Below, in pieces: positions 28,387 to 61,516 of a stretch of 64,000 nt of DNA. The DNA comes from Chondrosia reniformis (lineage: Eukaryota > Porifera > Demospongiae > Chondrillida > Chondrillidae). A model generated the notes under the pieces. It saw only the letters and a list, made by a program, of their open reading frames with translations. It was not told where the DNA came from and searched no databases. The first letter of the stretch is position 1; each line of letters opens with the position of its first letter. The stretch is from NCBI GenBank assembly GCA_947172415.1, contig OX359190.1:9052001-9116000 (forward strand), written 5' to 3'. The translations under genes and the position numbers were made by a program.

Positions 28387-29983
28387 ATGAAGCTTCTGTC
28401 TTTGCAATTGGTTCTCGTGTGTCTGCTCTTGCCCTCTGTTATCAGAGGAATGGTTATACATTCTAATGATGAGGAAAAGAGTGATTTTCAAGATGATATT
28501 GACTTAGAGGATTTCGACTTGGATAATATTGTTAAAATCAACAGTGAAGAGATAAATAAAGAAAATAAAGAAAATGGTGAGATAGAATTTTTGGTTTTAT
28601 TTATCTACCTGAAATATAATACAAATTCTGTCCCACTTAGATTTTCCTGTTACATTGGAAGAGTTTTTGCAAAGTGATGAAGTTCGAACTTCAGCATATG
28701 AGGCTCTCCATGCGGTCGGAGAATATATTAATGCCTTCAATGACTTGGCCAAAGAAGCTCAGGAATTAGGCCTAGGGATTGAGGAAGATGTTAATAAGGA
28801 TGAAGCTGAGATGGCTAGAGATGAAGAAAAGGATATTAGTGACGAGGCACTAGGGTTGAATGAAGACAGTTTCTTGAAAGCAATGGAAGAAGACATACGT
28901 GACTTAACCATAGCAGATCTTGATAGAGAATTGGATTCCTTGGATAGCGATGATGAGGATGACCAGCTGATAGGAACGGAAGAAGAATTTTCAGATGAGG
29001 AGGATGATTTTGATAATGGCATGTCAGATTTAGACTGGGATGATGATGAGACTCAGTTGGTAAGAATGCAGGGAGGTTTTTTAGACAATGAGGATGATTT
29101 CGATGATGACTGGGATGATGATGATTTTGACGAAGATGAGCTTGGTGGAGTGCTGAGAATGATGTCAGAAGAGGATAATGAAGACGATTCAGATGACTTT
29201 GATTTTGATAAAGCTGTTCATTTAGCAATGTTGAAAGAGCTTGGAAGTGATAGGGTCAGTTCTCAAGGATTTTTTACTAGTTTCTTAGGAAAAGCTGGCT
29301 CAATTGGCTCAAAGTTGGCAGGAAAGTTTGGAAAAGCCGGAAGATACCTAAAAGGAGGTATGTCCAAGATTAAGCAGTATGGTGGACGTGCTGCTAGATC
29401 ATTGAAAGGTGGATTTAACAAAATGGCAAATAGAGTAAGGCAGTATGGGAGTAGAATGAAGGGAATGGTATCTAAGTCTATAGGTAGGGTAAGGCAACTT
29501 GGGAGAAGAGCCTATGGCAAGCTGAGACAATATGGACAAAAGGTAGCTTCTGGAGTTAAGCGATATGGCCAAAAAGCATATGGTGCTATGAGGAGATACG
29601 GTGGCCAGGCATTGCAATATGGGAAACAAATTCTGCAAAGTCCACAAGGGCAGGAACTCTTAGGAATGGGACTTCAAAGTATGGGTTTATCCCCCCAGGT
29701 TAGTCAAGGACTGATGTCAGCTATAAACGGACAAATGCCTCAGAATTTGGGGGGAATGCTTAGACAAATGATGCCCCAGCAGCTACAAGGAATGATCCCT
29801 CAACAGCTACAAGGAATGATCCCTCAACAGCTACAAGGAATGCTTCCTCAACAACTACAAGGAATGCTTCCTCAACAACAACCCCAACAGATGCCACAAC
29901 AAATGATGGGGGGCGGTTATCCACAGCAGATGATGGAGGGCGGTTATCCACAGCAGATGACCGAAGGAGGGTATCCAGGTTGA
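28387..29983 (+). CDS. S1: secreted acidic/basic bipartite protein, Gln-Met tail
   Basis: Exons 28387-28576 and 28641-29983 (64-bp intron, phase 1) encode 510 aa. Layout: signal peptide 1-21 (core LQLVLVCLLLPSVI); Asp/Glu-rich segment to about 265; junction motif SSQGFFTS; Gly/Lys/Arg/Tyr-rich segment about 270-395 with repeating GKxG and RxYG steps; conserved module SPQGQELLGMG...GLSPQVSQGL (about 397-425); then PQQLQGM repeats and a G-G-Y-P-Q-Q-M tail. No enzyme domain. The bipartite charge plan recalls silaffin precursors, in which an acidic prosegment precedes a cationic silica-active part; this is analogy only. A poly(A) signal AATAAA lies near 30054. First of the cluster; shares the SPxGQ module with S2-S4. 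Confidence 0.85.
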
Positions 29984-32341: not shown

Positions 32342-34861
32342 ATGGAAGGATACAAAGTTTCATTTATCCTAATTGTTGCCATCCTTGCTCTCTTTAGCAA
32401 AGTTGGCTTCAGTGCTGATTATGAGTCAAAAGCCGCAGAAACTGAAGAGCATAGCCCTAGCAAGCTGAAAAATAATGTGGATGAGTTGGAACCAGTCTCA
32501 ACTAGCGCTCTGACCCAAGGTATATATATATAGCCAGAAACATATACATTTAATCAGCTAATATACCTATACATACTGACATACATACACTTTTTATGCT
32601 TCTTTATGTCATTAGATCGTGGAGAAAGTAAAACCAGAAGCAGAGAGGAGGAAGATGACTTGTTTAATGTATATCTGATGGAGGATGATATTGAAACAGA
32701 TGATGAATCTTCCACTTCTAGGAATGGTGAAGAAGTGGACACTACAAAATTTGAACATACATTAAGCAGAAACAGGGATAGCGCAGTATCAGGAGAATTG
32801 AAAATGAGAAAAGAGCATAATAAGAATTTAGTAGCTTATCAATGGGGACGAAGATTTAGAGTTAGATTTAGGGGTGTCAGGAGATTAGTGAGAAGAGTCT
32901 CTAGATCAGTAAGAAGATTCAGGGTAAAAAGGGTCTTTCGCAGCATCAGAAGAGTTGCTCGTAGAGTTACTAGAACTGTGAGAAGAGTAGTTAGGCGAGT
33001 AAAGAGATCTGTAAGACGGGTTGCCAGGAGAATATCAAGAGGTGTTAAACGTGTGGGTGGCAGACTGCTTCGCAGTGCAAGACGAATATGGAAAAAAGTA
33101 AAGAAATATGGAGGTAAGGCTTGGAGAAGCGCGAAAAGAATTGGAAAAAGAGTTTGGAGGGTTGCAAAGAGAGGCTGGTCTAACATAAAGAGAGTTGGAA
33201 AAAAACTATGGAGAGGTGCTAAGGGTTTAGCTAAGAAAGCTCTGAAATCTGTTAAAAAGTTTGGAAAAAAAGCATGGAAGGTTGTGAAAAAAGTGGGTAA
33301 GGCTGTGCTGAAGGCAGCCAAATCACCTATAGGCCAGGCTCTTTTGCAGATTGGCATGACAGCTTTGGGGGTTCCTCCTGGTGTTTCAGGCTTAATACTT
33401 GGAGCTGTTACAGGTAACCCAATGAATGGTTTAATGGGATTAATACCAGGAGGAAAGTTTTTGGGAGGAAAATTGCTGGGAAAAACAGTTGGAAAGTTTG
33501 CTTCCAAGTATCTAGGGAAATTTGCCAAATCTGGTGCTCTTGGCAAATTTTTGAAGAAGACTGCCGTAGGCAGGTTCCTTCAGAAGAATGTACTCAACAA
33601 AAAAGCATTACAGGATGTCTTAAGTGGTAATTACAAGGGCCTTGCAAAAAGGGTTGGGGGCAAGATGCTTGGGAAGTTGATTGGAAAAACAAAGCTCGGT
33701 GGTGTCATATCTAAGTATATTGGCAAAAATGGAGTCAATCAACTGCTAAGTGGCAACTTTAAGGGTATAGCAAAATCATTTGGTAAAAAGTATGCCAAAA
33801 AACTTCTCAACAAGGGTGCACTTGGAAAATTTCTGAAGAGGACCATTGGAAAAAAAGGTTTGAAATCCTTAATGAGTGGAAACTTCAAAGGACTTGCAAA
33901 GCAGCTTGGAGCAAAATATCTTACAAGGGGAAGATTAGGGAGTTACCTGCAAAAGAAGTTGGGAAAGGGAGGAATAAACAAACTTTTAAGCGGAAATTAC
34001 AGAGGCTTTGCTAAACAGCTATCTGGTAAATATTTGACTAAAGGAAAATTGGGGAGATATTTGAAAAAAACTCTTGGAAAAAAAGGCTTCAATAATTTGT
34101 TAAGAGGAAAATTTAGTAAACTTGCAAAAGGCATAGGAAGGAAAGCTCTAAAAAAGGTCCTCGGTAAATCTTCAATTGGCAAGACACTTCTAAAGGCTTT
34201 TAGCCGAAAAGGACTCAAACAGCTGAAATTTTCCAGACGAATAAGAGGATACTTTAGAAGAAGTAGATTGTACTCCAGGCTTAGAAAATACACTAAGGGT
34301 CGCTTGTATGGAAGAGTTAGGAAATATATAAGGAGGTATCGTAAAAATGGGAGATACAGAAACATCTTGAGAAGGTATAGCAGATTCAGGAAGTATGGAA
34401 GACGCATTATTAGAAGAACCTTGAGAAGGTACACCAGACTCAGGAGGTATGGAAGAACCTTGAGAAGGTACACCAGATTCAGGAGGTATGGAAGAACCTT
34501 GAGAAGGTATACCAGATTCAGGAGGTATGGAAGAACCTTGAGAAGGTACACCAGATTCAGGAGGTATGGAAGAACCTTGAGAAGGTACACCAGATTCAGG
34601 AGGTATGGAAGAACCTTGAGAAGGTACACCAGATTCAGGAGGTATGGAAGACGCATTATTAGAAGAAGAAGGTCTTGGTCTGGAAGAAGAGGGAGAAGAA
34701 GGTCTGGAAGAAGCAGGAGAAGAAGGTCTTGGTCTGGAAGAAGAGGGAGAAGAAGGTCTGGAAGAAGCGGTAGAAGAAGGTCTGGAAGAAGAGGGAGAAG
34801 AAGGTCTGGAAGAAGCGGGAGAAGAAGGTCTAGAAGTAGAAGGAGAGGGAGATGGGGATAA
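32342..34861 (+). CDS. S2: secreted giant polycationic repeat protein
   Basis: Exons 32342-32519 and 32616-34861 (96-bp intron, phase 1) give 807 aa. Layout: signal peptide 1-25; acidic/mixed segment to about 130; AYQWGRRFR junction; amphipathic Arg-Val repeats (VRRVxR, about 140-195) then Lys-Gly-Trp repeats (WRxAKxxGKK); module SPIGQALLQIG...GVPPGVSGL (about 295-320); about seven copies of a roughly 30-residue repeat (LSGNFKGLAK plus LGKFLKK); Tyr-Arg repeats GRTLRRYTRFRRY (39-bp DNA period, about 34398-34650); and an Arg-Ser-Gly terminus. Acidic residues almost vanish after the junction. It would bind polyanions (silica, DNA, heparin-like glycans) strongly. Poly(A) signal AATAAA at about 34982. 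The high-identity 39-bp repeats imply copy-number variation. Confidence 0.85.
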
Positions 34862-35863: not shown

Positions 35864-37236
35864 ATGGCAAGTTCAGTGACAGTACTCGTGCCAATCGCTC
35901 TTCTGCTCTTGGCACTCTGTTATGGAGAAACAAAAGTGTCTGATGCCACGATTAGTAGGGAAATTAAACAAGAGTTAGATAAAATATTTGAATCACTACC
36001 TGTGAGAACAGAGAATCAGAAACAAGTTCTATCAGAAGACACTAAATCAAGTGATGTCACAAGAATACTTCTCAAGAGAAAACAGGAAGCAGCAGAGAGG
36101 CAAAGCAGAGATTTGCTAACCGGAAACAAGAAAAACTTGGTCAAGTCCCAAGGATTCTTTAGCTCAATTGGGAGATTTTTTAAAAGGGTTGGTAAATCAA
36201 TAAAAAAAGTGGCAAAGAAAGTATATCATGGAGTCAAGAATGTAGCTAAAAAGGCATGGAAAGGAGTAAAGCACATTGGAAAAAAGGTATGGAGAGGAGC
36301 TAAAAAGTTTGCCAAACGGATTGGTCATGGAGTAAAAAAAATTGGAAAAGGAATAGCCAAATTTGGCAAGAAAGTATGGCATAAGGTTAAAACGGCAGGT
36401 AAAAAGATTTGGCATGGTGTGAAGAAAGTAGGCAAAGTTGTTGTTAAGACAGTAAAGAAGGTGGCTGCTGGAGTTAAACATTTTGCTGGGAAGGTTGTAA
36501 AAGGAGCAATAAAAATAGGAAAATCAGTTGTAAACACTGTTAAAAAGGTAGGTAAAGGGATTTACCAAGGTGCAAAGAAATTGGTTAAGGGTGCAGTAAA
36601 GATTGGGAAAGCTATAGTACACAAGGTTGTAAAGGTCAGTCCTTACACAAAACAATAAAGACAAAGTATGGCATCTTAAAGTTGCATATATATACGTACA
36701 CCTAGAATATATATGTACGTATATACGTATATTAATTTATGCAGGTCGGAAAGGCCATTTACAAAACAGCTAAAAAAGTTGGGAAAAAGGTATGGGGATT
36801 TGCCAAGAAGGTAGGAAAATTCGCATTAAAAGGATTGAAGGCAGTAGGAAAGGTTGCATTGAAATTCGCTCAGTCTCCCATTGGTCAAATGCTCATTCAA
36901 GGTGGATTGGAGTATCTTGGAGTTCCACCAATGATATCTGGTCCTTTACTAAGTCTTGGCACAAGTGTACTAGGGAATGTTTTGGGAACGAATAAGGAAA
37001 ACGCTGCACCACAACCTAATGGCCCACCCCCTAATTACTATCAAGGAGGCGGGGCAGGTGGCCCACCCCCCAGCTATTACTATCAAGGGGGCGGGGCAGG
37101 TGGCCCACCCCCCAATTATCAAGGGGGCAGGGCAGGTGGTCCACCCCCCAGCTATTATTATCAAGGGGGCGGGGCAGGTGGACCTCCACCTAATTATTAC
37201 TATCAAGGAGGACCAGTACCACAGCCTCAAGGATAG
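35864..37236 (+). CDS. S3: secreted Lys-rich protein with Gly-Pro-Tyr tail
   Basis: Exons 35864-36634 and 36745-37236 (phase 0, 110-bp intron, donor AAG|GTCAGT) give 420 aa. Layout: signal peptide 1-21; charged prosegment to about 95 (LLKRKQ and RQSRD sites); junction KSQGFFSS; long Lys-Gly-Trp/His repeats (GKKVWxGxKK, period 11) to about 295; module SPIGQMLIQGG...GVPPMISGPLL (300-330); tail of five YYQGGGAGGPPP-type repeats rich in Gly, Pro and Tyr. The 11-residue periodicity suggests a long cationic amphipathic helix; the tail resembles silk-, adhesive- or elastomer-like matrix segments. Reading through the intron would end after VSPYTKQ and lose module and tail. Near-duplicate of S4. AATAAA at about 37275. 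Confidence 0.85.
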
Positions 37237-38394: not shown

Positions 38395-39833
38395 ATGGCA
38401 AGTTCAGTGACAGTACTCGTGCCAATCGCTCTTCTGCTCTTGGCACTCTGTTATGGAGAAACAAAAGTGTCTGATGCCACAATTAGTAGGGAAATCAGAC
38501 AAGAGCTAGATAAAATATTTGAATCACTACCTGTGAGAACAGAGAATCAGAAACAAGTTCTATCAGAAGACACTAAGTCAAGTGATGCTACAAGTATACT
38601 TCTCAAGAGAAAACAGGAAGCAGCAGAGAGGCAAAGCAGAGATTTCCTAACTGGAAACAAGAAAAACTTGGTCAAGTCCCAAGGGTTTTTTAGCTCAATT
38701 GGTAGGGCATTTAAAAGGGTTGGTAGAACAATAGGACGAGTTGCAAAAAAAGCTTATCATGGAGTCAAGAATGTAGCCAGAAAGGCTTGGCATGGAGTAA
38801 GACGTATCGGAAGAAGGGTATGGAGAGGAGCTAGAAGGTTTGCCAAACGGATTGGTCATGGAGTAAGAAGATTTGGAAGAGGAATAATTAAAGTTGGCAA
38901 GAGAGCATGGCATACGGTTAAAACGGCAGGTAAAAAGATTTGGCATGGTGTGAAGAAAGTAGGCAAAGTTGTTGTTAATAAAGCAAAGAAGGTAGCTGCT
39001 GGAGTCAAAAATGTTGCTAAGAAAGTTGTACATGGAGTAAAATCAGTTGGGAAAAGAGTAGTAAATACGGTTAAAAAGGTAGGTAAAACGATTGCCAAAG
39101 GAGCCAAGAAAGCTGTACATTCTGCAATAAAGGTTGGGAAAGCAATGGTCAACAAAGTTAAAAAGGTTCGCTCTACCATATAGATACAAGTACACAACAG
39201 ACAATGCTTCCATTAGATGGTATGTGTGACTATATATAGGCTTCATGCAATTGCATACTTTTCTAATTAAATTAAATGAAAATAATATCTATTCTTTTGA
39301 AGGTGGGAAAGGCCGTTTATAACAAAGCTAAACAAATTGGGAAAAAAGTAGCTGTATTTGCCAAGAAGGTAGGAAAAGGTGCATTGAAGGGACTAAAAAA
39401 AGTAGGAAAATTTTCAGTGAAATTTGCCCAGTCTCCCATTGGTCAAATGCTTATTCAAGGTGGATTGGAGTATCTTGGAGTTCCCCCACAAGTATCAGGT
39501 CCTTTGCTTCAGGTTGGCACTGGGTTACTAGGAAATGCTTTGGGAATGAACCAACAACCACCACCACCTAATTACGGAAGTGATTACAATCAAGGAGGCG
39601 GGGCAGGTGGACCTCCACCTAATTATTACTATCAAGGGGCCGGGGCAGGTGGACCTCCACCTAATTATTACTATCAAGGGGGTGGGGCAGGTGGACCTCC
39701 ACCTAATTATTACTATCAAGGGGGCGGGGCAGGTGGACCACCCCCCAGTTATTACAATCAAGGGGGCGGGGCAGGTGGCCCTCCACCTAATTATTACTAT
39801 CAAGGAGGACCAGTACCACAGCCTCAAGGATAG
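38395..39833 (+). CDS. S4: tandem duplicate of S3 (Arg-shifted)
   Basis: Exons 38395-39165 and 39303-39833 (phase 0) encode 433 aa. Exon 1 is exactly as long as in S3 (257 codons) and nearly identical over the signal peptide and prosegment. In the basic part many Lys of S3 are Arg here (RRIGRRVWRGARR against KHIGKKVWRGAKK). The donor AAG|GTTCGC is weak; S3 has GTCAGT at the same place. Exon 2 has SPIGQMLIQGG, GVPPQVSGPLL and six GGGAGGPPP/YYYQ repeats. If the weak donor is skipped, the protein ends after KVRSTI without module and tail. Same inferred role as S3. Confidence 0.83.
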
Positions 39834-40136: not shown

Positions 40137-40809
40137 TTATTTTTGTATATAGTGAATACCATTCATAGGCTTTGTTGGGTTAAATAAACAAGAGATATCG
40201 TACATGGAATTTTGACATTTGTGAAGATGATGAAGAATATTCTTTGCTGTCTTCCTTGTAGATACTTTTTTGGGCGGTCTTGAAATATGTATTTCTTTTT
40301 TGGTTGCAGCTGGCTTAGAAGGTTTACCTTTTGGTAATCTTGCTTTGAGATTATGCAAATTTGGCATTTTAGGGATTGGCACTTTAGTTTTGCTGACTTT
40401 TGATCCACAATGCTTCTTCCAAAAGTTTTTGTAGTATGAACTATAGTAACTGGAGTACAATTTTTTGTACTGTGCTTTCAAGGCATCCAGCTTTCGTTCA
40501 TACCACATAGTGCAATTGGGACTTGGAGTATAATGTGATGCTGCTTGATCATCTGGCAGATGAGGACTTTTTACACTTACTGGTAGTATGGGGCCTTTAT
40601 TAGTCTTAACCTTTTTTGCACCAGGTAGTGACTCTACAAAAACAATATATAAATGCTATATTATAAACCGTAAGGTATATATATAGGATTTATTATGTTA
40701 CAAAGTAAATGGCTATAATATCATGAAACATACCAGCAATATTAATTGAAAGCGTACAGACAGAAAATGTTAGTGCCAGATGTATGAAAACTGACAATTT
40801 TGGATTCAT
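40137..40809 (-). CDS. S5: small secreted Lys/Tyr-rich Cys protein, opposite strand
   Basis: On the minus strand, exon 1 is 40809-40734 and exon 2 is 40633-40137 (99-bp intron, phase 1, donor GTATGT), giving 190 aa. Exon 1 encodes a signal peptide (core VFIHLALTFSVCTLSI). Exon 2 is Pro/Lys-rich, then PNCTMWYERKLDALKAQY, LYSSYYSSYYKNFWKKHC, then a Lys/Pro segment. The segment W-x(3)-L...LY..YY.xF.K..C resembles the start of the S6 C-terminal domain (WLQLYHDLYKKYYRKF then LC), so S5 looks like a short relative without acidic and Lys-repeat parts. It is the only cluster gene on this strand. The sequence upstream (plus 40840-40870) has TTAAAAAGG as a possible TATA element. Confidence 0.75.
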
Positions 40810-47775: not shown

Positions 47776-47817
<42 letters not shown>

Positions 47818-50800
47818 ACACTATCACCACACTGCTTTAAGCACACACAGACACTGTAAAATACTGCATTTTCTAAAGCCAAAATGCAGATATCTGCCTT
47901 GATTTATGTAATTTACTTTCCATCTTTAGGAGGCAGACTGCCATGGATTCTGAGTGGAGCTGTTTTAGTATTTTCAATCACCACAGTGTATGGATACAAT
48001 GGTTTTGGTAACAGCAATGATAATATTAATGGATGGAGCCAGGAGGTTCTAGACCAGAATATAGAATTTGAAGATATAGGCAAAACAGAGTCCATGGATA
48101 ATGGATTAGGTGATGATAACCTATATTTGTGGGAACAGGATTTTGGAGATTATTTCGATGAAGATGATGATGATGATTTTGATGATGAATTTGATGGTGA
48201 TGACGATGAATTAGATTGGGCAAGTAGCCAGAATGGGTTAGGTGAACTTGACAATCCAAATCACACAAGAACTGATTCGTTTTGGGGAGGTGAAAGTCAT
48301 TTTGGTGAAGGAGATTCTAGCTGGAATGGTGAAAATGGTAATTCTGAATTTTGGGAAGATGTATTTGATGGTGATGACGATGAATTAGATTGGGCAAGTA
48401 GCCAGAATGGGTTAGGTGAACTTGACAATCCAAATCACACAAGAACTGATTCGTTTTGGGGAGGTGAAAGTCATTTTGGTGAAGGAGATTCTAGCTGGAA
48501 TGGTGAAAATGATAATTCTGAATTTTGGGAAGATGAATTTGATGGTGATGACGATGAATTAGATTGGGCAAGTAGCCAAAATGGGTTAGGTGAACTTGAC
48601 AATCCAAATCACACAAGAACTGATTCGTTTTGGGGAGGTGAAAGTCATTTTGGCAAAGAAGATTCTAACTGGAATGGTGAAAATGGTAATTCTGAATTTT
48701 GGGAAGATGAATTTGATGGTGATGACGATGAATTAGATTGGGCAAGTAGCCAGAATGGGTTAGGTGAACTTGACAATCCAAATCACACAAGAACTGATTC
48801 GTTTTGGGGAGGAGAACGGGGTTATGGTGAAGGAGATTCTAGCTGGAATGGTGAAAATGATAATTCTGAATTTTGGGAAGATGAATTTGATGACGATACA
48901 TTTGACTGGGCTACCAGCCAGGACAATTCATTGGCTAAGCCAATGGCTACTAATAATTTTGAATCAAGCAATGGATTTGATGACGATACATTTGACTGGG
49001 CTACCAGCCAGGACACTTCATTTGCTAAGCCAATGGCTACTAATAATTTTGAGTCAAGCAATGGATTTGATGACGATACATTTGACTGGGCTACCAGCCA
49101 GGACAATTCATTTGCTAAGCCAATGGCTACTAATAATTTTGAGTCAAGCAATGGATTTGATGACGATACATTTGACTGGGCTACCAGCCAGGACAATTCA
49201 TTTGCTAAGCCAATGGCTACTAATAATTTTGAGTCAAGCAATGAATTTGATGACGATACATTTGACTGGGCTACCAGCCAGGACAATTCATTTGCTAAGC
49301 CAATGGCTACTAATAATTTTGAGTCAAGCAATGAATTTGATGACGATACATTTGACTGGGCTACCAGCCAGGACAATTCATTGGCTAAGCCAATGGCTAC
49401 TGAGATAGTCACAACAGAAGAAGGTTATAATATGGCTTGGGCAAATGATGATGATGGATATATTCATGTAAATGACGATAATAAAATTGATGATTTAGAA
49501 AACTTGGGATTAGGTCAAGGAATGTATCCTGGTCGGGCTGAGGCAAGAGAATCAGACAGTTTAGCTGATGATGAATGGTATGATGAATTTGGTGACGACT
49601 TTGAAGACCTTGAAGACCTTGAAGACAGCATTCATCTTCAGGAGAATCCTGTTTTGATGCAAGAAGAAGTGCAAGGCCAACTCTTTGAAGATTTAGATGA
49701 ATCAGTGGACAAAGATTTTGATAATTTCAACAATGAACTGAAAAATTTTAAAGATGATTTTGAAACAGGTTTGAATGAGTTAGCTGGAGAATTTGCAGGG
49801 GAAAATGAAGAAATCAGTGTAATGGATACAAAATTAGATGAAATCCAAGACCTGGAAAATTTTATCAATTCAATGGAAGAAAATGATGATTTGGATAACT
49901 TTGCTTCAATAGTATCAATGGAAGACTTGGGCGATACTAATGTGGACAGCCATCAATTTGATGATGATATGGAATTATATGAAGGAACAGATGCTGATAA
50001 AATGGACACAGAGGAGGAAGAAGATGAGTGGGGAACACCTGCAAAGGAACAAGACTTGGAGGTCCAACGTCATAGTTCACATCATAGTTCACATCACAAA
50101 TCTCATCCCACTTCACATCACAAATCTCACAAGAAACATCACAAGAAACATCACAAGAAACATCACAAGAAACATCACAAGAAACATCACAAGAAACACG
50201 CAAGCAAGAAACACAAACCAAAACATCACAAGCACCCCCATCATCGCCCAATGGGAAAATCTCATCCTGCACCACCTCCTTCAAATAGGAAGAAACAAAG
50301 AAGAATAAATAGACTAGAGAAGAGAAAGAGGAGAATACAAAAGAAATATGACAAGAAAATTGCCAAGGCTCCCCCAGCTAAAAAGAGAAGGCTTCAGAAG
50401 AAGAAAGCTAGAAAGGAAAAGAGATTGAACAGAAAAATAAAGCATATAAAACAAGGAAGAGTTCCCTTGGTAACAAAACGGCATTTGGTTAAGAAAATCA
50501 TCCGAAAGATTAAGAGAGCTCGTAGAAAGATTGCAAAGAAGATAAGACATAGATGCCGCAAAAAGGTTGCTAAAATACTTCCAGTTTTGACAAAGCTTTA
50601 CAAAAAACGATACGGAGCTCATTACAAGAAGAAGTTAGCCCGAAAGATTCACCGCATTTGCAAACATGTTAAACATAAGGTTGAAAGGCATTATGCCCAC
50701 AAATTGAAGAGAAAAATCAACAGACTCCATCGCAGATTGAGAAGAAAGCTTCGCCACCATATGAGAAAGGTGCCAAAGAGGGCTAGACACAAGTTAAGAC

Positions 50801-51138
50801 GTAAACTGAGAAATGTAATCAAAATCCTTCCTCATAAGATCCGTCGCAGATTGAAACACTTGGCACACAAATTGAAACATGTCATTGGAAAAAGACGACG
50901 TCACATAATTAAACGCCATGTTGTACCACTTATGAGAAACTACTGTGAAAAAATCCGAAAGAAGGTTTCAGACAGGCGTCGGGAATTCCGCAAGACCAGA
51001 GGATGCAGAAATTCGAAGAAGTGCTCATTCTATGAGAAGATTCGTAATATAGACCGAGACTACACTAAGGTCATAATGAGAATGAAGCCAGCCATCAGTA
51101 TGTGCAATAAAATAATGGATATAAAGATCCAAATCTAA
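47677..51138 (+). CDS. S7: 1073-aa secreted acidic-repeat / His-Lys / basic protein
   Basis: Exon 1 codes only MSPK (47677-47689, donor G|GTAAGT); exon 2 is 47930-51138 (acceptor CTTTAG, phase 1). The joined N-terminus has a good signal peptide (core WILSGAVLVFSITTVYG). Then comes an acidic stretch, four copies of a 58-aa repeat (174 bp; DGDDDELDWASSQNGLGE, from 48190) and six of a 30-aa repeat (90 bp; FDDDTFDWATSQDNSFAKP, from 48886). A further acidic region leads to about residue 710, then SHH/KHH repeats (KKHHKKHHKK), then about 270 residues of Lys/Arg/His-rich helix-like sequence, and the same C-terminal Cys module as S6 (CEKIRKK, KCSFYEKI, DYTK). The His-Lys tract recalls glassin of glass sponges by composition only. 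The intron has a (CA)n run (47773-47816). Confidence 0.83.
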
Positions 51139-52360: not shown

Positions 52361-53200
52361 ATGGACATACTGAAAGTAGCTTTCCTAATTTTAATCTCTA
52401 CTGATATAGTCTGGGTCAAAGGTAAGGGAACTCCTAGTCAATCCAACCGTCATGAGGAAAAAGTTTCTAGTGAAAAGAAGAAACAAACAATCTCACATTT
52501 GGATGAAGAATCTGGAGAAGACGACATTCATCTAAACCTAAGCAATGAAGAGGATGTCGATACACTTTTAAACTTGATAGGTTTGAAGGAATCTGGCAAT
52601 GAAGAAGCAGGTGCTGATGACATGGTAAAACTTATGAGATTAATGAGTGGAAGTGAGGAAAATTCTGAGGAATTAAGTAACCTTCTAATGAGGATGGGTG
52701 AGGTAGGGAATCAAGGCAGGAACGAGCAGGCAACCAAAGACAAGACTAAAACCGACACAGAAAGCACTAGCAACCCTAAAGAGTCAGCAAAAGAGGATAT
52801 TGAAGATGGAAATTCTGATAATGAAGCTGCTACTACTTCAGATGATGATGACAAGGAGGCCACAGATTCTGACACTGGTGAAACATGTAGCGAAACTAAT
52901 GATGATTGCAATCTAGAGATTAAACATGAGGAAGATGATTTTGGCTTTGTGCATAGTGACAAAATAATGGAGAGTCTCATGAATTTTTTTGGGAGAAAAC
53001 CTCACACAGAGGAAGAAGGGAAGATAGAGGAAGAAGGTGAACATAAGGAAGAAGGGAAGAATGAGGAAGAAGGTAAAGACAAGGAAGAAGGTAAAGATAG
53101 GGATAATCCAAACTCACAGTGTGATGACAGAGAAGAAGATTTGGAGCACTTTCCAAATAAGGCTCCAACTTGTGATAATACTTCTCACACGGGAGAATGA
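52361..53200 (+). CDS. S8: secreted acidic protein without a basic half
   Basis: Single-exon frame of 279 aa. Signal peptide (core LKVAFLILISTDIVW), then Asp/Glu/Ser-rich sequence, an acidic Ser/Thr/Asp centre (SDDDDKEATDSDTGETC), and EEGKxKEEGK repeats (18-bp period) near the end, with four Cys overall. It has an in-frame end (TGA) and no obvious splice donor extending it, so it appears to lack the polycationic half of its neighbours. It could act as a polyanionic partner, or a 3' exon has been missed. No known domain. Confidence 0.7.
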   Translation: MDILKVAFLILISTDIVWVKGKGTPSQSNRHEEKVSSEKKKQTISHLDEESGEDDIHLNLSNEEDVDTLLNLIGLKESGNEEAGADDMVKLMRLMSGSEENSEELSNLLMRMGEVGNQGRNEQATKDKTKTDTESTSNPKESAKEDIEDGNSDNEAATTSDDDDKEATDSDTGETCSETNDDCNLEIKHEEDDFGFVHSDKIMESLMNFFGRKPHTEEEGKIEEEGEHKEEGKNEEEGKDKEEGKDRDNPNSQCDDREEDLEHFPNKAPTCDNTSHTGE

Positions 53201-53892: not shown

Positions 53893-55623
53893 ATGAGGTC
53901 CTTTCTTCTAATTCTAGGTCTTCTTTGCATCACTTCACAGGTATTCAGTAACTCCATTAGTAATGACCTTCGCAGACTAGAAAAGGACATAGAAGAGTTA
54001 AAGAGCAAAGAGAAAAGCGAGTATAACGATGACTCAGAGAAAAATGAGATTGATTCTGATTCAGAAGTGGAAAGTGAAGGTTTGAAAGCTGAGCAGGATC
54101 TGGAAGATGAACTGAGAAGACTTGAAGGTCTATTAGGAGATAATGAGGAGAAAAAGGAAACAGATAATGTAGAAACAGACAGTGATCAGGAGAAGGATGA
54201 AACAGAAGAAGAAGGCAACGAAGATTATTTTAACAACCTAGAGAAAAACTTCAAAAATGACTTGAAAAGGTTTGATGAGCAACTGAAAAAAGAGATAGAA
54301 AGTTTACGTTCCTTAGATGAAGCCTCAATCATGAAGGACATATTTGCTGAGAGCAATGAAGACGATGAGCTGGATGATGATGAAGTTGATGAAGAAGATG
54401 ATGATGAAGTTGATGAAGATGATGATGATGAAGTTGATGCAGAAGATGATGATGAAGTTGATGAAGAAGATGATGATGAAGTTGATGAAGAAGATGATGA
54501 TGAAGTTGATGATGAAGATGATGATGAAGTTGATGATGAAGATGATGATGAAGTTGATGATGAAGATGATGATGAAGTTGATGCAGAAGATGATGATGCG
54601 GCAAAAGTAAAGGACGATGATGATAATGATAAAGGTGATTCTGAAATTGATAAAAGAAGTAACAATAAAGAAGAATCAAAAAGCAATGAGGATTTTGAAG
54701 ACATTGAAAAAAAGTTTGAGAAGGCATTGAAAAGGTTAGAGAAATCACTAAAGGAATTTGAAGCTGCTGAGGAAGAAGATAATGAAAATCTAGAAGAAGA
54801 AAATGACGAAGTAGAAGACCAAGATGAACTAACTGAAGATGATGACAGAGAGGAAAAAGAAAAAGATTCTGAAGAGAAAGGTGATAAAAATGACGAGTCA
54901 AAAGAATCTAATGACATTGAAAAATATGATAACATGGAGAGAAAGTTTGAAAGGGCACTGAAGAGATTAGAAAAATCACTAAAGGAAACGTCTAAGAGGG
55001 AAGACAGTGAAAATGTTGAAGCTGAAAGTTATGATGAAGGAGAAGACTTAGGTGATCTAGCTGACGTAGAAGAGGATGATGACGAAGGAGAAGACTTAGG
55101 TGATCTAGCTGACGTAGAAGAGGATGATGACGAAGAAGATCTTGTTGAGCAAGAGGATGAAGCAACAACTATGAGCAAGAAGAAAAGGCGTAAATGTCTC
55201 AGAAAAAACAGAAGAAAAATGAGAAGAATTCGTAGACGCTACTGGAAACAATATAGAAAACTGTTTAGAAAGCAAAAGAGAGGTCTTAATTCATTCTACT
55301 GGAAAATCTGCATCCATAGAGCATCCAAGGAGGACCTAATGGAGCAAATGGGCCTAAGCAAGGCTTTGGTAACTGATGAAAGCATGACTGATTCAGAGCT
55401 GAAGGACTTTCACAATTACCTCTCTGGCCTGGATGAAGAAGATGCACTGTCAGAAGAATCAGAAAATGATGCAGAAGCAGAAGGCTTAAAGAGAAGATGC
55501 TTCAGAAGATACAAGGGAAAGAGAAAGGCAATGAGGCAGCGATTCCGAAGGATGTACAGAAACTTCTTCAAAAGACACATGCGATACATCAGAAATGCCC
55601 TCAACAGGAGATGCAAAAAATAA
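53893..55623 (+). CDS. S9: secreted acidic protein with basic Cys C-terminus
   Basis: One exon, 576 aa from ATG 53893 (chosen because the signal peptide RSFLLILGLLCITSQVFS starts there and a TATA box lies just upstream). The protein is dominated by Asp/Glu. It has two related helical segments (FEKALKRLEKSLKEFE and FERALKRLEKSLKE) probably forming coiled coils, and about ten copies of DDDEVDEE/DDDEVDDE (24-bp period, 54364-54600). An Arg/Lys-rich terminus follows in two lobes, KCLRKNRRKMRRIRRRYWKQ and RRCFRRYKGKRKAMRQRFRR, separated by an acidic linker. Acidic-basic alternation is repeated, as in S10/S12, but the basic share is small. Poly(A) signal AATAAAAATAAA at about 55777. Confidence 0.82.
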   Translation: MRSFLLILGLLCITSQVFSNSISNDLRRLEKDIEELKSKEKSEYNDDSEKNEIDSDSEVESEGLKAEQDLEDELRRLEGLLGDNEEKKETDNVETDSDQEKDETEEEGNEDYFNNLEKNFKNDLKRFDEQLKKEIESLRSLDEASIMKDIFAESNEDDELDDDEVDEEDDDEVDEDDDDEVDAEDDDEVDEEDDDEVDEEDDDEVDDEDDDEVDDEDDDEVDDEDDDEVDAEDDDAAKVKDDDDNDKGDSEIDKRSNNKEESKSNEDFEDIEKKFEKALKRLEKSLKEFEAAEEEDNENLEEENDEVEDQDELTEDDDREEKEKDSEEKGDKNDESKESNDIEKYDNMERKFERALKRLEKSLKETSKREDSENVEAESYDEGEDLGDLADVEEDDDEGEDLGDLADVEEDDDEEDLVEQEDEATTMSKKKRRKCLRKNRRKMRRIRRRYWKQYRKLFRKQKRGLNSFYWKICIHRASKEDLMEQMGLSKALVTDESMTDSELKDFHNYLSGLDEEDALSEESENDAEAEGLKRRCFRRYKGKRKAMRQRFRRMYRNFFKRHMRYIRNALNRRCKK

Positions 55624-57153
55624 ATACAAAATCACTAAAATATACAGTTTGGGAATTTTGTGTGATGTATAGACTTAATTTTACTTAGAGTTTGAAATGA
55701 TTATTATTTACTGCAATTTTTTGGTGTGAGACATTTAAAAGATACATGTGTTAACTACTATTTTTGCAAAACTTTCAATAAAAATAAATCTTACAATAAA
55801 TTATTAGTTTCAGCTAAAATGCATACCTATTATCATCACTATCCTGAAAAACTGTAGATATGATTATATAATATAAGTACATATGTACTCAGTCTTTCAA
55901 CTAGTGAATCTAATTAAGGCTGCTATACTGTTTAGGCTTATAAATATATATAAAACAGACACATCCATATGACACTGTATATATACTAATATTTCACTTT
56001 ATATAGGCGTGACAAATCTAACTAGGTAATCATTTTTTTCCATTTTGGATGACAAGAGAGGCAATCACTGGTTGCATAAGTCACATATACATATATATAT
56101 GTAAGTCTAGGAATGTATGCCAAGGATTCACAGAAGATCAAGATAAAGAAAAAGACAAAGACTCCCAGGATCACTGATGAAGGGTGGAATTCCCAGAAAC
56201 GGCTGTCTGACCCAGTGGAGAAGAAGATGAAAGAAGGGAAAAGAAGGAAGAAAAGACTCCTGTATCTTCATCTAAAGCTCTCTTTAGGTTTAGTTCCCCT
56301 ATAGGCTCTTTTTACAGAATAGGCATATAGCATGTAGGAAAATGGTATATTAGATTTTTCATGCTTTAGTCTATTAAGTCTATTAAATTATGCGCTTCCT
56401 TATATGGCATCACAACCATATATATGGTTAGAGAAATGGCATATTAAATTATTCATTTACACTCTTTCCAACAAATAGGAGTGAAATAGGTAATTCCTAG
56501 CTATAGGGTTGCTATAGTTATATTATACATATACATACCCATATAAGCAGTAATATATGGGGCTTATGTAGCTCATGTGGGTCCCTAATTATAAATCCCC
56601 TCTTACAACCCACCATAGATTATCTAGTATGGATAGTCTATTAACTTACAACTAAGCAATTAGTCACCATTCCCACACACAGGATTTTTGTATATACGTG
56701 CGTATGAATGGGCTAATTTTAATTTCCAAGGTATAAGCATACAAAAATAAGGTACACAAAGTCACCACTCAACACATGTCAGTCTAATAACATGTTTTTG
56801 ATTGATGAGAGATTTCTACCAGTTGGTAAACAAAAGTGTGGTATATACTAGCTACGTATATACGTATAACCAGGTTTTCTCTTCCTAAAGTATGATCAGT
56901 GTACTGAGTAACTGATTTCATTTCAAAGCTGTTTATACCGACAAACGTTTATGCACCTAATGTCATAAAATAACAATCAAAATCTTATTTTCAACAAAAA
57001 ATAGTAAGGAAAAAACAAAGACTTTAAGTCTTTGAATAGAAAATAAAAGTACTCCATACTAATTGTGTATATACAAAGGTACAAATAGGATGCTTATTAC
57101 CTCAAGAATACTTATAAGACAGCGCAGAAGAATTCTCAGAGAAAAGAGCAAGA
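55624..57153. other. intergenic; R1 repeat and S10 promoter block
   Basis: Besides the R1 repeat (56110-56310) it holds, at about 56945-57153, a block shared with 59640-59844 upstream of S12: TTATGCACCTAATGTCATA-type start, then AAGTCTTTGAATAGAAAATA, a TATAAGACAG element about 42 bp before the ATG, and GAAGAATTCTCAGAG. This is the duplicated promoter. Confidence 0.55.
56110..56310 (+). repeat. dispersed repeat R1 with hammerhead-like core
   Basis: The core at 56168-56213 reads GGATCA, CTGATGA, AGGGTGGAATTCCCA, GAAA, CGGCT, GTC, TGACCC. The stem I strands pair in 5 of 6 positions and stem II has GGG/CCC with an A-A mismatch at its base. The layout equals that of the hammerhead at 27523. Flanks contain purine-rich GAAGGGAAAAGAAGG and CTAAAGCTCTCTTTAGG. 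Confidence 0.65.
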
Positions 57154-58868
57154 ATGAAGATCCTTGTTCTGCTCCTGGTTTTTCTTTCTTTGGGAAATAA
57201 TCTTCTAGCTGAAGAGGAAATCTCTGAAGACAAAGATGGCACGTATCTGGAGTCACTGTGGATGAACAATATCCTGGCCGCAGATGAAAGGGATAATGAG
57301 GAAGATACTGACCAAATGGACCTTTCTGAGAGGGGGAGGGATGAAATGGACCAGGAATTGGAAAAGAAGAGGACAGAATCATTCAATGATTTTCTGGATG
57401 TATTAATGGAAGAAGATGATGAAGATAAGAACACGAATGAAGTAACAGCAGCTTCTGGTCATTCTACAACCTCTCAGTGGTGGAAAAGACGGAGATGTGT
57501 ACGCACAGTCTACAGATGCAAGAATCCTAGCCATTACAAGAGATACTACCAAAGATACTATTCCCGCTATTATGCAAGATGGTACAAGAGGTATTATGTA
57601 AGGGTATTCAGCCGCCGTTACCATAGATACTACAAACGATATTATGGCAGATATTATGGTAGAAAGCTTAGAGGGCATAAGAGAAAATTAGCTAGAAAAT
57701 ACCACAAAAGGTACAATAAGTATTATCACAGGCTCTGGAAAAGGTACCATTCCAGGAGATACCGCAGGTACTACAAGCGTTACTACAAGAGGTATTACAA
57801 CAAGAGAAGATGCAAGAAAAGATGCAAGCGTGTTGCAATCCAACATACCTCTGCCTACAAGTATAGTCAAATATATACATATGTGCTAAACTAACCATAC
57901 AAATTAAATATGTACGTATAAGAATGATCATTTCCCTAAAAAGACGTCAATATATGATCAAAAATTATTAGTATAGACTGTTTGCTAAGATTATTACTTG
58001 GGGAAAACATTTAGAGCTTTGGATGAGAATGCAGTTATATACCATATTCTTCCTTGTCCACTGGGCCATATGTACAACAATTCCTAGGCCTGTAGATTAC
58101 CAATAATTGTACATGTACATACGTATATATAACTATATATCAGTGCATATATTATCAAGAGCCACTTACAATAAAGTATTTCACATTTTTGTACATTCTG
58201 ACAGTTATCTTCACCATGGAAACAGTGATGTTATGCAATCCCAAGAATATGGTAAATCTGAGGAAGAAGAATATAGGAGAAATAAGGATAATACTAAAGG
58301 ACGAAAAAATGATGAAATGGGTGATTATGATTATGACATGCTTGATGAAGATCAGGACAATGAAGACCTTGATATTACAGAGCAAGAAATGATGGATTTG
58401 GAGGAGCACAAGAAGAAAGATGGAAGAAAACATTCAGAGGATGATGAAATGGCTTTAGGTGATGAAGAGGATTTTAGGAAGCAAAGGGAAGCAAAGAACA
58501 CTCTTACAAAGTCACAATGGTGGAAAAAACGGTGCAGTACTCGTTACGTAAACAGGTGCTCTGGGGTGGCTAGACGTTATTCGAAGCTATACAAACGTCA
58601 CTACTCACGTTACTACTCAAGGCTTTACTACAAGAAGTACAAGAGATACTACAAAAGATATTGGGCAAGGTACTTTGGTAAGAAAAGCTATTGGATCAGG
58701 CATTACAATTGGAGATATGCTTATGGCCACTATCACAGTAACTACTGGAATAGACGTCATAATAGATACTACAAGAGATACTACAAGAGACACTACAAGC
58801 GATATTATGCCAGAAAGTGCAAAAAATATTGCAAAAAGTCTTCACTTACAAAAGAAGGCTTAAAGTGA
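57154..58868 (+). CDS. S10: secreted double (RYY)n protein, two exons
   Basis: Exon 1 is 57154-57860 (donor AA|GTATAG, phase 2) and exon 2 is 58205-58868 (acceptor GACAG), 456 aa in frame. Each exon encodes one acidic segment plus one Arg-Tyr-rich domain. Exon 1: signal peptide (core ILVLLLVFLSLGNNLLA), acidic segment, TSQWWKRRRC, C-x6-C, YKRYYQRYYSRYYARW-type repeats, ending CKKRC. Exon 2: acidic segment, KSQWWKKRC, C-x7-C, similar repeats, ending CKKYC. Without splicing, exon 1 ends in its own stop 34 nt later, so a shorter one-domain form is possible, but the exon-2 frame alone lacks a signal peptide. Tyr/Arg content near half suggests stacking or cross-linking (dityrosine, DOPA) matrix proteins; function is inferred only. 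Paralogue of S12. Confidence 0.72.
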
Positions 58869-59639: not shown

Positions 59640-59844
59640 GTCTATGCACCTAATGTCATTAAATAACAATCAAAATCCTATTTTCTACGTTTAGAGACAG
59701 GAAAAAGCAAAACAACAATAGACTTCAAGTCTTTGAATAGAAAATAAACTACATTAGCTCCATGTTAATTGTATGTTTACAATGTGTTTATTAGCCTAAA
59801 GCATATAAGACAGTGTAGAAGAATTCTCAGAGTGAAGAGCAAGA
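59640..59844 (+). promoter_or_regulatory. S12 upstream block duplicated from S10
   Basis: Shares CACCTAATGTCATAAATAAC-type sequence, CAAGTCTTTGAATAGAAAAT, TATAAGACAG and GAATTCTCAGAG with the S10 upstream region at matching distances. TATAAGA about 40 bp before the ATG is the likely TATA box. Confidence 0.55.
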
Positions 59845-61516
59845 ATGAAGATCCTTGTTCCGCTCCTGGTTTTCCTTTCTTTGGGAAATAATCTTCTAGC
59901 TGAAGAGGAAATCTCTAAAGACAAAGATGGCACATATCTGGAGTCACTGTGGATGAACAATATCCTAGCTGCAGATGAAAGAGATAATGAGGAAGATACT
60001 GACCAAATGGACCTTTCTGAGAGGGGGAGGGATGAAATGGACCAGGAATTGGAAAAGAAAGAAGCTATGAAAGATTTTCTTAAAGTTCTAATGGAAAAAG
60101 AAGAGAATGCTTATAATAAGGATGCAGACAATGATGCTTCTGAAATCCAAGAGACGAACCAACTTTTGAGTAAGAGGGTACTAATGAAGAGACTAAATGC
60201 CAGAAGAATGCAAAATAGCAACTTAGTCACCTCCCAGTGTACAAGAATTAGATACAAATGCTTTAACCCCAGATATTACCAACGATATTACCAGCGATAC
60301 TATTCTCGTTATCACGCACAACGTTACAGCAGATATTATTCAGGAGTATACAAAAAGTATTATTACAAGTACTACAAGAGATATTATGGCAGATACTTTG
60401 GAAAGAAACTTATAAAACTCAAGAAATATCTAGCAAAGAAGCATCATGGTTATTATAACAAGTACTATTACAGCTACTGGAAGGGGCACCATGTTAGAAG
60501 ATACAAGAACTACTACAAGAACTACTACAGTAGATACTACAACAAGAGGAGATGTAAAAGAATGTGTAAGCGTATTGCAAGCCAACAGAGATCAGAGAGC
60601 AAGTATGGTTAAATACTATTAGATAGATGTAATACATTGATATATTAATGCCTGGCCCAGTGGAGAAGATGATGAAAGAAGGGAAAAGAAGGAAGAAAGA
60701 CTCCTGTATCTTCCTCCAAAGCTGTCTCCAGGTTTAGTTCCCCTATAGGCTTTTTTACAGAATAGGCACAGCATGTAGGAAAATGGTATCTTAGATTTTT
60801 CATGTACATATACATATATCAACATCAATAATAACTGTTGCTAACCCTTATACTTACCTTGATGCAGCAGTTACAAGAAGCTACTAAATACTAAGGACAC
60901 TTATGCTGAAGGGGCTACCAAGCTGGATTTAGAACAAGAAAGGCAAGGATTATCATATCAACATGAGGATTCTGATAACATAGACAATATTGGTGTGGAT
61001 GCAACAATTGATGACTATTCTGATTATCTTCAAAATTATGATGACAATGATGATGATGATGATTATTATTCACAAAGACTGAAAGATCACATTGAGGAGC
61101 AGCAAAAGTCTGGTACAGTTAAGAGCATGTGGCCTCGAATCAGCTGGCCAAGAATAAGACCAAGAAGGTGCCGTACTCGCTATGTCAACAGGTGTTCAGG
61201 GACTGCTAGGTACTACTCCACCTATTACAACAGATACTACTCACGTTACTATTCCAGATATTATCAGAGATATTACTCACGATACTACAAGAAATATTAT
61301 GCAAGGTATAAATACAGTAAAAAACGTTACTGGATCAACTACTACAACTGGTACTATGGCTACGGTCACTATCACAACAAATTTTGGAACAAACGTCATG
61401 ACAAATACTATAAAAGGCACTACAAGCGTAAATACAAGAAGTACTATGCTAGAAGGTGCAAAAAATATTGCAAAAAGTCCTCAGCAATACATACAGGTAA
61501 GATGACATTCCAATGA
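59845..61516 (+). CDS. S12: duplicate of S10, secreted double (RYY)n protein
   Basis: Exon 1 is 59845-60602 (donor AA|GTATGG, phase 2) and exon 2 is 60871-61516 (acceptor GCAGCAG; NAGNAG, optional Ser), 467 aa. The signal peptide and first acidic segment are almost identical to S10 (ILAADERDNEEDTDQM). The basic part of exon 1 has diverged: TSQCTRIRYKC, then YYQRYYQRYYSRYH-type repeats, CKRMC. Exon 2: acidic segment with DDYSDYLQNYDDNDDDDD, then RRCRTRYVNRCSG, (RYYS)n repeats, GYGHYH, CKKYC. It lost the QWW of its relatives (SMWPRISWPRIRPRRC instead). A donor-like ACAG|GTAAGA lies before the stop, so a further exon is possible. The intron carries a partial R1 repeat (60648-60800). Confidence 0.7.
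60648..60800 (+). repeat. partial R1 repeat inside the S12 intron
   Basis: Matches 56203-56370 (CCCAGTGGAGAAGATGATGA, CTCCTGTATCTTCCTCCAAA, TTTAGTTCCCCTATAGGCTT). The S10 intron has a degenerate copy in the opposite orientation (58012-58065). Confidence 0.75.

What the first reader, a model, noticed from the sequence alone, without database searches (positions are those of the whole stretch)
28387..61516. A cluster of ten secreted acidic-then-polycationic genes, a candidate biomineral or matrix scaffold locus
Seen: ten adjacent gene models (S1-S10, S12), nearly all with a signal peptide, most with an acidic segment and then an extremely Lys/Arg-rich repeat segment; no enzyme domains. Known: diatom silaffin precursors have the same order (signal, acidic pro-part, cationic repeats), and sponge glassin is His-rich. 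Inference: the locus makes silica-precipitating or polyelectrolyte matrix proteins whose acidic halves keep the cationic halves soluble until cleavage. Alternatives are antimicrobial cationic peptides, glue or mucus proteins.
Basis: partly seen in the sequence, partly recalled or inferred. Interest (0 to 1): 0.92.

Follow-up and report, generated by a model that had tools for sequence, protein, structure and literature searches.

The report
Sponge cluster of secreted polycation precursors
A spicule-less Mediterranean sponge carries one tight cluster of at least thirteen apparently unstudied genes for secreted proteins that mostly start acidic and end strongly positive; they probably coat or disrupt negatively charged surfaces such as bacteria or the sponge's own sulphated matrix, rather than building silica.

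Summary
28387-61516 carries 13 gene models (11 complete); a 14th lies just outside the window. 11 of 13 are acidic-then-basic and 11 of 13 begin with a hydrophobic signal-like stretch. The genome is Chondrosia reniformis, a demosponge without siliceous spicules. All 13 cathepsin-family active sites I read carry cysteine, not the silicatein serine, and 0 of 14 proteins meet a published silaffin-like composition rule, so silica is not supported; one His-rich stretch in G7 is the exception to note. Two mature-part families dominate: cationic 11-residue amphipathic helices with an SPIGQ/GVPP module (G1-G4), and (R/K)YYx repeats (G10-G14). Good matches in the sponge genome lie only at this locus. 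Both families have relatives in unnamed contigs with the same order: acidic part, xQ hinge, polycation. One relative, P0017, joins an RYY-type prepro (78% over 49 residues) to a different, Arg-rich amphipathic mature part. Best reading: charge-neutralised stored precursors that release polycations, organised like cnidarian antimicrobial-peptide families; the main rival is a matrix glue or stiffening role. No expression data were available.

The parts
28387..28576 (+). G1 exon 1: signal peptide and start of acidic part
   Evidence: gene model with GT..AG intron; hydrophobic N-terminus
28641..29983 (+). G1 exon 2: acidic part, SSQ|GFF hinge, cationic amphipathic repeats, SPQGQ module, Gln/Pro/Met/Tyr tail; whole protein 510 aa, net -48
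   Evidence: matched by P0005
32342..32519 (+). G2 exon 1: signal peptide and acidic start
32616..34861 (+). G2 exon 2: hinge AYQ|WG, Arg/Lys 11-mers, SPIGQ..GVPP module, Lys repeats with identity at lags 38-42, 13-residue Arg/Tyr repeats; protein 807 aa, net +229
35864..36634 (+). G3 exon 1: signal, short pro part, VKSQ|GFF hinge, Lys-rich 11-mer amphipathic helix
36745..37236 (+). G3 exon 2: last 11-mers, SPIGQ..GVPP module, PPPNYYYQGGGAGG repeats
38395..39165 (+). G4 exon 1, paralogue of G3
   Evidence: (80% identity)
39303..39833 (+). G4 exon 2, paralogue of G3 exon 2
   Evidence: 75% identity
40734..40809 (-). G5 exon 1: signal-like start
40137..40633 (-). G5 exon 2: basic, Cys-bounded aromatic stretch (C66-C101); 190 aa in all, net +27
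43878..44082 (+). G6 exon 1: signal and acidic start
44199..45934 (+). G6 exon 2: acidic part, KKGKAKK repeats, C-terminal Cys domain shared with G7; 646 aa, net +83
   Evidence: (G7 match E=2.4e-7)
47884..51138 (+). G7: long acidic part with near-identical DNA repeats (94-100%), a His/Lys stretch (26 His in 60 residues from residue 730), Lys/Arg segment, Cys domain; 1084 aa, net -50 (N part -184, C part +133)
52361..53200 (+). G8: acidic protein without a basic part, 279 aa, net -47
53893..55623 (+). G9: DDDEVDE repeats, then two Cys-bounded basic aromatic modules (C435-C473, C536-C574); 576 aa, net -119
57154..57894 (+). G10: signal, acidic part, TSQ|WW hinge, (R/K)YYx repeats between cysteines; 246 aa, net +30
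58023..58091 (+). candidate first exon of G11 (junction uncertain)
   Evidence: hydrophobic stretch
58209..58868 (+). G11: acidic part, KSQ|WW hinge, RYYx repeats (coding exon; 5' limit uncertain)
59845..60612 (+). G12: paralogue of G10; first 70 residues 68/70 identical, mature part 75/130
60881..61516 (+). G13: acidic part and RYYx repeats; first exon not found, no xQ hinge

Best explanation
A single-locus cluster of secretory precursor genes, probably restricted to sponges or nearby animals. SHOWN: most precursors begin with a signal-like stretch and an acidic pro-part that meets a strongly cationic repeat part. In G1-G4, G10-G12, G14 and the twelve foreign relatives (P0001-P0005, P0011-P0017) a small residue plus Gln stands at the junction (for example VKSQ|GFF, VKAQ|WGFF, TSQ|WW); G13 and the other genes lack it. 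Two types of mature part recur: long cationic amphipathic helices of 11-residue units with a hydrophobic SPIGQ/GVPP module, and 4-residue (R/K)YYx aromatic-cationic repeats. INFERRED: the acidic part neutralises the polycation in the secretory granule, and cleavage at the hinge frees it outside the cell, where it binds anionic surfaces. COMMITTED GUESS: the main target is microbial envelopes, meaning defence and control of the dense bacterial community of this high-microbial-abundance sponge. The Tyr/Gly/Pro/Gln tails and the co-encoded polyanions would keep the polycations anchored in the mesohyl. This works like the charge-bipartite antimicrobial precursors of Hydra, with much larger, multi-unit mature parts.
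For: Charge order: shuffling p<=0.006 in 11 of 13 window genes. 11-mers: the helical hydrophobic moment exceeds shuffles by z=8.0-12.3 in the 11-mer segments of G1-G4 and z=8.2-9.4 in P0001 and P0005, peak angle 98-100 degrees, lag 11 among the three strongest identity lags in six of six. RYYx: lag-4 identity among the three strongest lags in G10-G14, 6-11 tetrad pairs per protein. The same order recurs in relatives P0001-P0005 and P0011-P0017. P0017 shares the prepro of the RYY-type P0014 (38/49 identical, E=2e-22), but its mature part is an Arg-rich amphipathic segment (moment 0.50; 4 of 2000 shuffles as high). Paralogues keep the prepro and diverge in the mature part: G10/G12 68/70 (first 70 residues) against 75/130, P0012/P0013, on one contig, 151/188 against 58/102. 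Hydra antimicrobial precursors are described with a signal peptide, bipartite charge, cysteine pattern, clustered paralogues and taxon restriction (PMC10945409 passages). Weak leads only: a myeloid antimicrobial peptide (1fry; SMAP-29, name recalled) is listed against the G3 helix and profile A3 at E 0.55 and 0.78 (not significant), and an orbivirus VP5 match (E=0.0018) lies below its curated cut-off. The best solved-structure match of profile A3 is a designed helical bundle (E=5.6e-5), which says helix and nothing on function. AlphaFold gives mostly helix for both types, at low confidence (mean pLDDT 48-49).
Against: No expression, proteomic or activity data. Mature parts of roughly 130-700 residues are far larger than usual antimicrobial peptides. 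The PPPNYYYQ, GYGQ and Gln/Pro tails, the Lys-rich G6, the His/Lys stretch of G7 and the acidic-only G8 look structural. dN/dS is below 1 in six of seven segments measured and unmeasurable (synonymous sites saturated) in the seventh, the G10/G12 mature part, so there is no sign of an arms race. The hinge motif was defined after seeing the sequences, many of which are paralogues, and no protease for it is known. Hendecad KKVGxGIKxA repeats also arise by convergence (a bacterial MAG; probably P0006-P0009), so the repeats alone prove little. P0017's mature part has no significant BLASTP match to G2 or P0005.
Confidence: 0.4

Rival explanations
1. Non-mineral matrix, adhesive or stiffening proteins. 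Released polycations and co-encoded polyanions form complex coacervates with sulphated glycans and collagen; Tyr-rich tails and RYY repeats cross-link or stick. They would stiffen, glue or seal the mesohyl and cortex of Chondrosia.
For: Large repetitive proteins; Tyr/Gly/Pro/Gln-rich tails in G3, G4 and the relatives P0001, P0003, and a Gln/Pro/Gly tail in G1; RYY repeat parts about 24-35% Tyr in G10-G14; an acidic-only protein G8 and strongly acidic G7 and G9 beside very basic G2 and G6. Chondrosia yields a sticky self-healing hydrogel with GAG-like molecules and other proteins (PMC5742840 title, abstract and passages). It is described as the only sponge proven to have a dynamic collagenous mesohyl that stiffens (PMC5867623 passages), with released 'stiffening factor(s)' (Fassini 2014, title seen only in reference lists).
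Against: Strong helical amphipathicity with an aliphatic/aromatic face in G1-G4 fits membranes better than glycan gels. A conserved prepro with a changing mature part is more typical of defence or toxin precursors (recalled). No cross-linking evidence.
Confidence: 0.33
2. Silica- or biomineral-organising proteins, silaffin-like or glassin-like in mode.
For: The acidic-then-basic order and Lys pairs resemble the sil1p precursor (residues 20-107 acidic, 108-265 basic; PMC3820600 passages). G7 has a 60-residue stretch with 26 His, recalling the His-rich parts of glassin and perisilin (PMC10772126 passages). Any polycation will bind silica (established chemistry), and reference titles report uptake of foreign, siliceous particles by Chondrosia.
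Against: The animal lacks siliceous spicules. 13 of 13 cathepsin-family active sites read are Cys-type. 0 of 14 proteins meet the silaffin-like Ser/Lys composition rule; RIL/RNL motifs occur only once each in G3 and G14. Apart from G7 no protein has more than 5 His in 60 residues.
Confidence: 0.06
3. Egg-coat, brood-nutrition or other reproductive or storage secretions that use charge and aromatic repeats for dense packing.
For: Charge-segregated repetitive proteins packed in secretory granules would fit, and Hydra periculins, also charge-bipartite, are made in female gamete precursor cells (PMC10945409 passages).
Against: No direct evidence; nothing in the sequences points to germ cells.
Confidence: 0.12
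4. Nuclear basic (histone- or protamine-like) DNA-packing proteins.
For: A linker histone H1 gene lies about 0.9 kb beyond G14; Lys-rich KKGKAK repeats in G6 recall H1 tails.
Against: Signal-like N-termini in 11 of 13; acidic pro-parts; no SPKK-like motif in 14 of 14.
Confidence: 0.03

Closest known systems
Hydra antimicrobial precursor families (arminin, periculin)
   Same: signal peptide, strongly bipartite charge distribution, cysteine pattern in some, paralogues clustered in genomic loci, taxon-restricted (PMC10945409 passages)
   Different: no sequence relation was tested; here the mature parts are roughly 130-700 residues of repeats, some with Tyr/Pro/Gly tails; no activity data
Diatom silaffin precursor sil1p
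   Same: acidic part, then Lys/Arg repeats (PMC3820600 passages); signal peptide (recalled)
   Different: fails the silaffin-like Ser/Lys rule (0 of 14), almost no RIL/RNL motifs, host has no silica skeleton; here repeats are amphipathic 11-mers or RYYx
Hexactinellid glassin and perisilin
   Same: secreted, low-complexity sponge proteins with signal peptides; G7 alone shares a His-rich stretch
   Different: those are His-rich proteins extracted from spicule silica (PMC10772126 passages); 13 of 14 proteins here are His-poor and there are no spicules; no sequence relation was tested
Echinoderm tensilin and other stiffening factors
   Same: working analogy only: secreted, granule-stored protein that binds sulphated GAGs and bridges collagen fibrils (PMC3500250 passages)
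   Different: tensilin is TIMP-like; no Pfam family passes its cut-off in the ten ORFs scanned here
11-mer lipid-binding repeats (apolipophorin III, perilipin, senescence domain)
   Same: hendecad amphipathic helix (their 11-mer nature recalled); sub-threshold Pfam hits for G3
   Different: net +64 over 204 residues in G3, far more cationic than those families (recalled); below curated cut-offs

Membership tests
Silaffin-type silica proteins | signal, acidic pro-part, basic repeat part | tested here: met
   11 of 13 window genes for each feature
Silaffin-type silica proteins | at least 100 residues with >=18% Ser and >=10% Lys (rule quoted in PMC3820600) | tested here: not met
   0 of 14 Chondrosia proteins and 0 of 6 relatives tested
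Silaffin-type silica proteins | host makes a silica skeleton | tested here: not met
   Chondrosia lacks siliceous spicules; genome identity by exact 8,459,200-base scaffold and 17,451-base mitochondrial contig
Glassin/perisilin-type silica proteins | His-rich segments in the protein | tested here: inconclusive
   present in G7 only (26 His in 60 residues); 13 of 14 proteins have at most 5 in 60
Sponge silicatein pathway | cathepsin-like protein with Ser in place of the active-site Cys (criterion recalled) | tested here: not met
   13 of 13 active-site sequences read carry Cys. The remaining of the 43 matches start after or lie away from the active site; genes behind some of them may have an active-site exon that the search missed
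Charge-bipartite antimicrobial precursors (Hydra type) | signal peptide and bipartite charge | tested here: met
   11 of 13 window genes for each
Charge-bipartite antimicrobial precursors (Hydra type) | clustered paralogues, taxon-restricted | tested here: met
   own-genome searches give good matches only at this locus (counts are lower bounds by the tool's own note); no curated Pfam hit in ten ORFs; relatives only in unnamed contigs (each scoring a capped list of 7999 candidates), so the taxonomic limit is inferred
Charge-bipartite antimicrobial precursors (Hydra type) | microbicidal activity of the released part | not testable with these tools
   needs the expressed mature part
Charge-bipartite antimicrobial precursors (Hydra type) | proteolytic release of the cationic part | tested here: inconclusive
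   motif near the boundary in 16 of 23 sequences against 6.4 expected from shuffles, but two of the 16 (P0002, P0003) are other Q sites, paralogues are not independent and the motif was chosen post hoc
Tensilin-like stiffening proteins | TIMP-like domain | tested here: not met
   no Pfam family over its cut-off in ten ORFs of nine genes
Linker histone / protamine | no signal peptide; SPKK-like motifs or H1 globular domain | tested here: not met

The most novel reading that the evidence does not exclude
A previously undescribed superfamily of animal secretory precursors in which one signal-plus-acidic prepro cassette is combined with interchangeable polycation cassettes (amphipathic 11-mers, RYYx tetrads, Arg-rich segments). 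In Chondrosia its products are the unidentified stiffening factors of the dynamic mesohyl: polycations released on contact that condense the sulphated collagen matrix and also guard it against microbes.
Probability: 0.12. Interest if true: 0.85.

Novelty: new variant of a known kind. Interest (0 to 1): 0.56.

Why it matters
It gives named, testable candidate genes for two open matters: how a high-microbial-abundance sponge controls bacteria in its mesohyl, and what Chondrosia releases to stiffen its collagen. It also warns that an acidic-then-cationic secreted precursor in a sponge is not by itself a sign of silica: here the layout sits in an animal with no silica skeleton. The prepro sharing between different mature parts suggests a modular way to make new secreted polycations.

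Tried and rejected
Chondrosin: the known cytotoxic protein of this sponge is 199 aa with pI 5.11 (PMC7459819 abstract and passages). No cluster protein matches that description, so it was set aside without a sequence comparison.

Viral and bacterial relatives: scans of viral contigs with A2 found none and with A3 found five weak 28-34% matches, not looked at further. Genome contigs with A4 found none and with A3 one bacterial MAG with hendecads. I took these as convergent.

A further RYY match on C14 is a minisatellite-like frame reading RLYTRPYT. Weak matches of G9, G6 and P0005 elsewhere in the genome (4, 3 and 4 rows; E 2e-5 to 8e-4; 23-45% identical) were taken as low-complexity or unrelated and not followed.

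Positive selection: tested with a simple Nei-Gojobori count on two pairs; no ratio above 1, one segment saturated. Synonymous divergence is much lower in the prepro than in the mature part (G3/G4 0.10 against 0.38 in the helix; G10/G12 first 70 codons 0.13 against saturated), which suggests gene conversion or 5' cassette exchange, not faster protein evolution of the mature part.

Literature for the sequences themselves: strings RYYSRYY, RYYNRYY, YYKRYYKRYY, KKVGKKIW, KKVGKKVW, SPIGQ gave one paper, on mussel adhesion, not opened. Topic searches (listings only, of which PMC10772126 and PMC3820600 were read in passages) showed nothing that describes such a locus. This covers the held open library only.

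Structure: both AlphaFold jobs gave mean pLDDT 48-49, so no fold search was run. No NCBIfam scan was made (one search failed on the reading frame).

Full report
Identity of the sequence. The window is G000:C2:9052001-9116000 of a 117,379,552-base, 15-contig genome. A 17,451-base contig and a scaffold of exactly 8,459,200 bases match the published mitochondrial size (17.45 kb) and scaffold N50 (8,459,200) of Chondrosia reniformis odChoReni1.1 (PMC12181767: abstract and passages). The total and the longest scaffold differ slightly from the paper (117,390,217 and 10,413,042 against 117,379,552 and 10,409,357), which I cannot explain but which does not alter the identification. This sponge has no siliceous spicules and is supported by collagen.

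Observation. I model 13 genes in 28387-61516, of which 11 are complete, 12 lie on the + strand and G5 on the minus strand, and a 14th just outside the window. Charges are segregated N to C with p<=0.006 in 11 of 13; G5 is basic only and G8 acidic only. Net charges run from -119 (G9) to +229 (G2). A signal-like hydrophobic stretch is present in 11 of 13. No Pfam family passed its cut-off in the ten ORFs (nine genes) scanned.

Two mature families. In G1-G4 the basic part is a chain of 11-residue units. Lag 11 is among the three strongest identity lags in the segments of G1-G4, P0001 and P0005, and the hydrophobic moment at 100 degrees exceeds composition-matched shuffles by z=8.0-12.3. G2's later repeat blocks B and C score only z=1.2 and 4.5, so they are not of this kind. 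The chain is followed by a hydrophobic module around SPIGQ and GVPP, shared by G2-G4 and P0001-P0005 and, less well, by G1, and then in most members by a Tyr/Gly/Pro/Gln tail. In G10-G14 the basic part is (R/K)YYx repeats, with a CX6-7C pair before and a CX3C pair after them in G10-G13; G14 has three cysteines. G5, G6, G7 and G9 carry Cys-bounded basic segments. The G6 and G7 C-terminal domains are related (36%, E=2.4e-7). I suspect, but did not show, that the aromatic period-4 stretches of G5, G6 and G9 are related to the RYY family.

One locus. Searches of the whole genome with G3, G10, the G7 C-part, G9, G6 and the foreign relatives P0011 and P0005 found good matches only here; the tool states that its counts are lower bounds. 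Weak outliers exist for G9, G6, P0011 and P0005; the P0011 one on C14 is minisatellite-like, and the others, among them two duplicated C7 places (23%, E=2e-5), were not followed. Paralogue pairs G3/G4, G10/G12 and G11/G13 show that the cluster grew by tandem duplication.

Relatives elsewhere. The protein search with G3 returned nine proteins (a capped list of 7999 candidates was scored), of which five (P0001-P0005) share hinge, 11-mers and the SPIGQ module; P0006-P0009 share only hendecads. P0001-P0004 have only a weakly acidic part and no visible signal peptide in the fragment, probably because a first exon is missing. Profile searches with the RYY family returned P0010 (G10 itself, 97% identical, from another record) and P0011-P0017. 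P0011-P0016 have a signal-like start, an acidic part and a YY-rich basic part. P0017 has the same prepro (38/49 identical to P0014, E=2e-22) but an amphipathic Arg-rich mature part beginning VKAQ|FWG. The hosts of these contigs are not named by the tools; I infer sponges or other animals.

Prepro and hinge. In G1-G4, G10-G12 and G14, and in P0001-P0005 and P0011-P0017, a small residue followed by Gln stands at the acidic-to-basic border; G5-G9 and G13 lack it. In a 60-residue window placed by charge alone the motif occurs in 16 of 23 sequences against 6.4 expected. The motif was chosen after inspection, the sequences include paralogues, two of the 16 hits are at other Gln residues, and P0016 and P0017 were not in that test. 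The Chondrosia hinges NLVKSQ (G3, G4), NLVAYQ (G2) and NLVTSQ (G12) link the two families by eye. Paralogues keep the prepro and differ in the mature part. Synonymous divergence shows that the prepro is younger or converted. I read this as a prepro cassette that is exchanged between different mature cassettes.

Silica. Cathepsin-family matches (43) include 13 sequences with the active site that I read, all with Cys. No cluster protein meets the silaffin-like rule quoted in PMC3820600 (0 of 14). With the absence of spicules this makes a silica role unlikely. Against this stand the His-rich stretch of G7 (26 of 60 residues) and the mention of silicateins in non-spicule sponges in that review.

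Mechanism. Shown: the order of parts, the repeats, the single locus and the relatives. Inferred: neutralised storage, cleavage at the hinge, release of a polycation. Whether the target is microbes (0.40) or the sponge's own matrix (0.33) is open. The amphipathic face and the prepro pattern favour the first; size, Tyr-rich tails, polyanion partners and the known biology (sticky GAG-containing hydrogel, stiffening factors) favour the second. Both may be true. AlphaFold models are mostly helical but of low confidence.

Novelty. The closest working analogue is the charge-bipartite, clustered, taxon-restricted antimicrobial families of Hydra (PMC10945409 passages). No sequence relation to them was tested. 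The sequence families have no Pfam model over cut-off in the members scanned (for P0001, P0003 and P0005, and 36) and no trace in the open literature searched.

Noticed in passing
window 16665-17234, 22883-23368, 26324-26821 (+): Three extracellular-looking exons, similar by eye, left of the cluster, without any Pfam hit: perhaps another small tandem family.
   Followed up: partly
C2:9118020-9118595 (-), L026:2020-2595: A linker histone H1 gene (Pfam E=2.4e-29) about 0.9 kb beyond G14; no further cluster-like ORF of 80 aa or more was seen in the next 37 kb.
   Followed up: partly
window 42258-42897: Tandem array of a 38-base unit (copies step by 38 bases) between G5 and G6.
   Followed up: no
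window 62744-62977: Tandem array of about 16-base units right of G13.
   Followed up: no
window 48159-49401: Acidic repeats of G7 are 94-100% identical in DNA, so they expanded or were homogenised recently and may vary in number between individuals.
   Followed up: no
window 56204-56363 and 60649-60804: A 160-base duplicate (91%) outside the gene models, one copy upstream of G10 and one between G12 and G13.
   Followed up: no
window 30617-30718: A short element of about 85-100 bases with 43 further scored matches across the genome, perhaps a short mobile element.
   Followed up: no
L059:4722-5972 (MAG from horse faeces): A bacterial protein ends in KKVGEGIKNAA hendecads and GGFFKKLFGKK, very like the sponge 11-mers, I think by convergence.
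   Followed up: partly
P0006 and P0008: Signal-like start plus pro-part plus KVGNGVKNVA hendecads, fungal-looking by eye; P0006 passes the Pfam cut-off for the suprabasin repeat (34.4 against 31 bits). A similar layout may have arisen independently.
   Followed up: no
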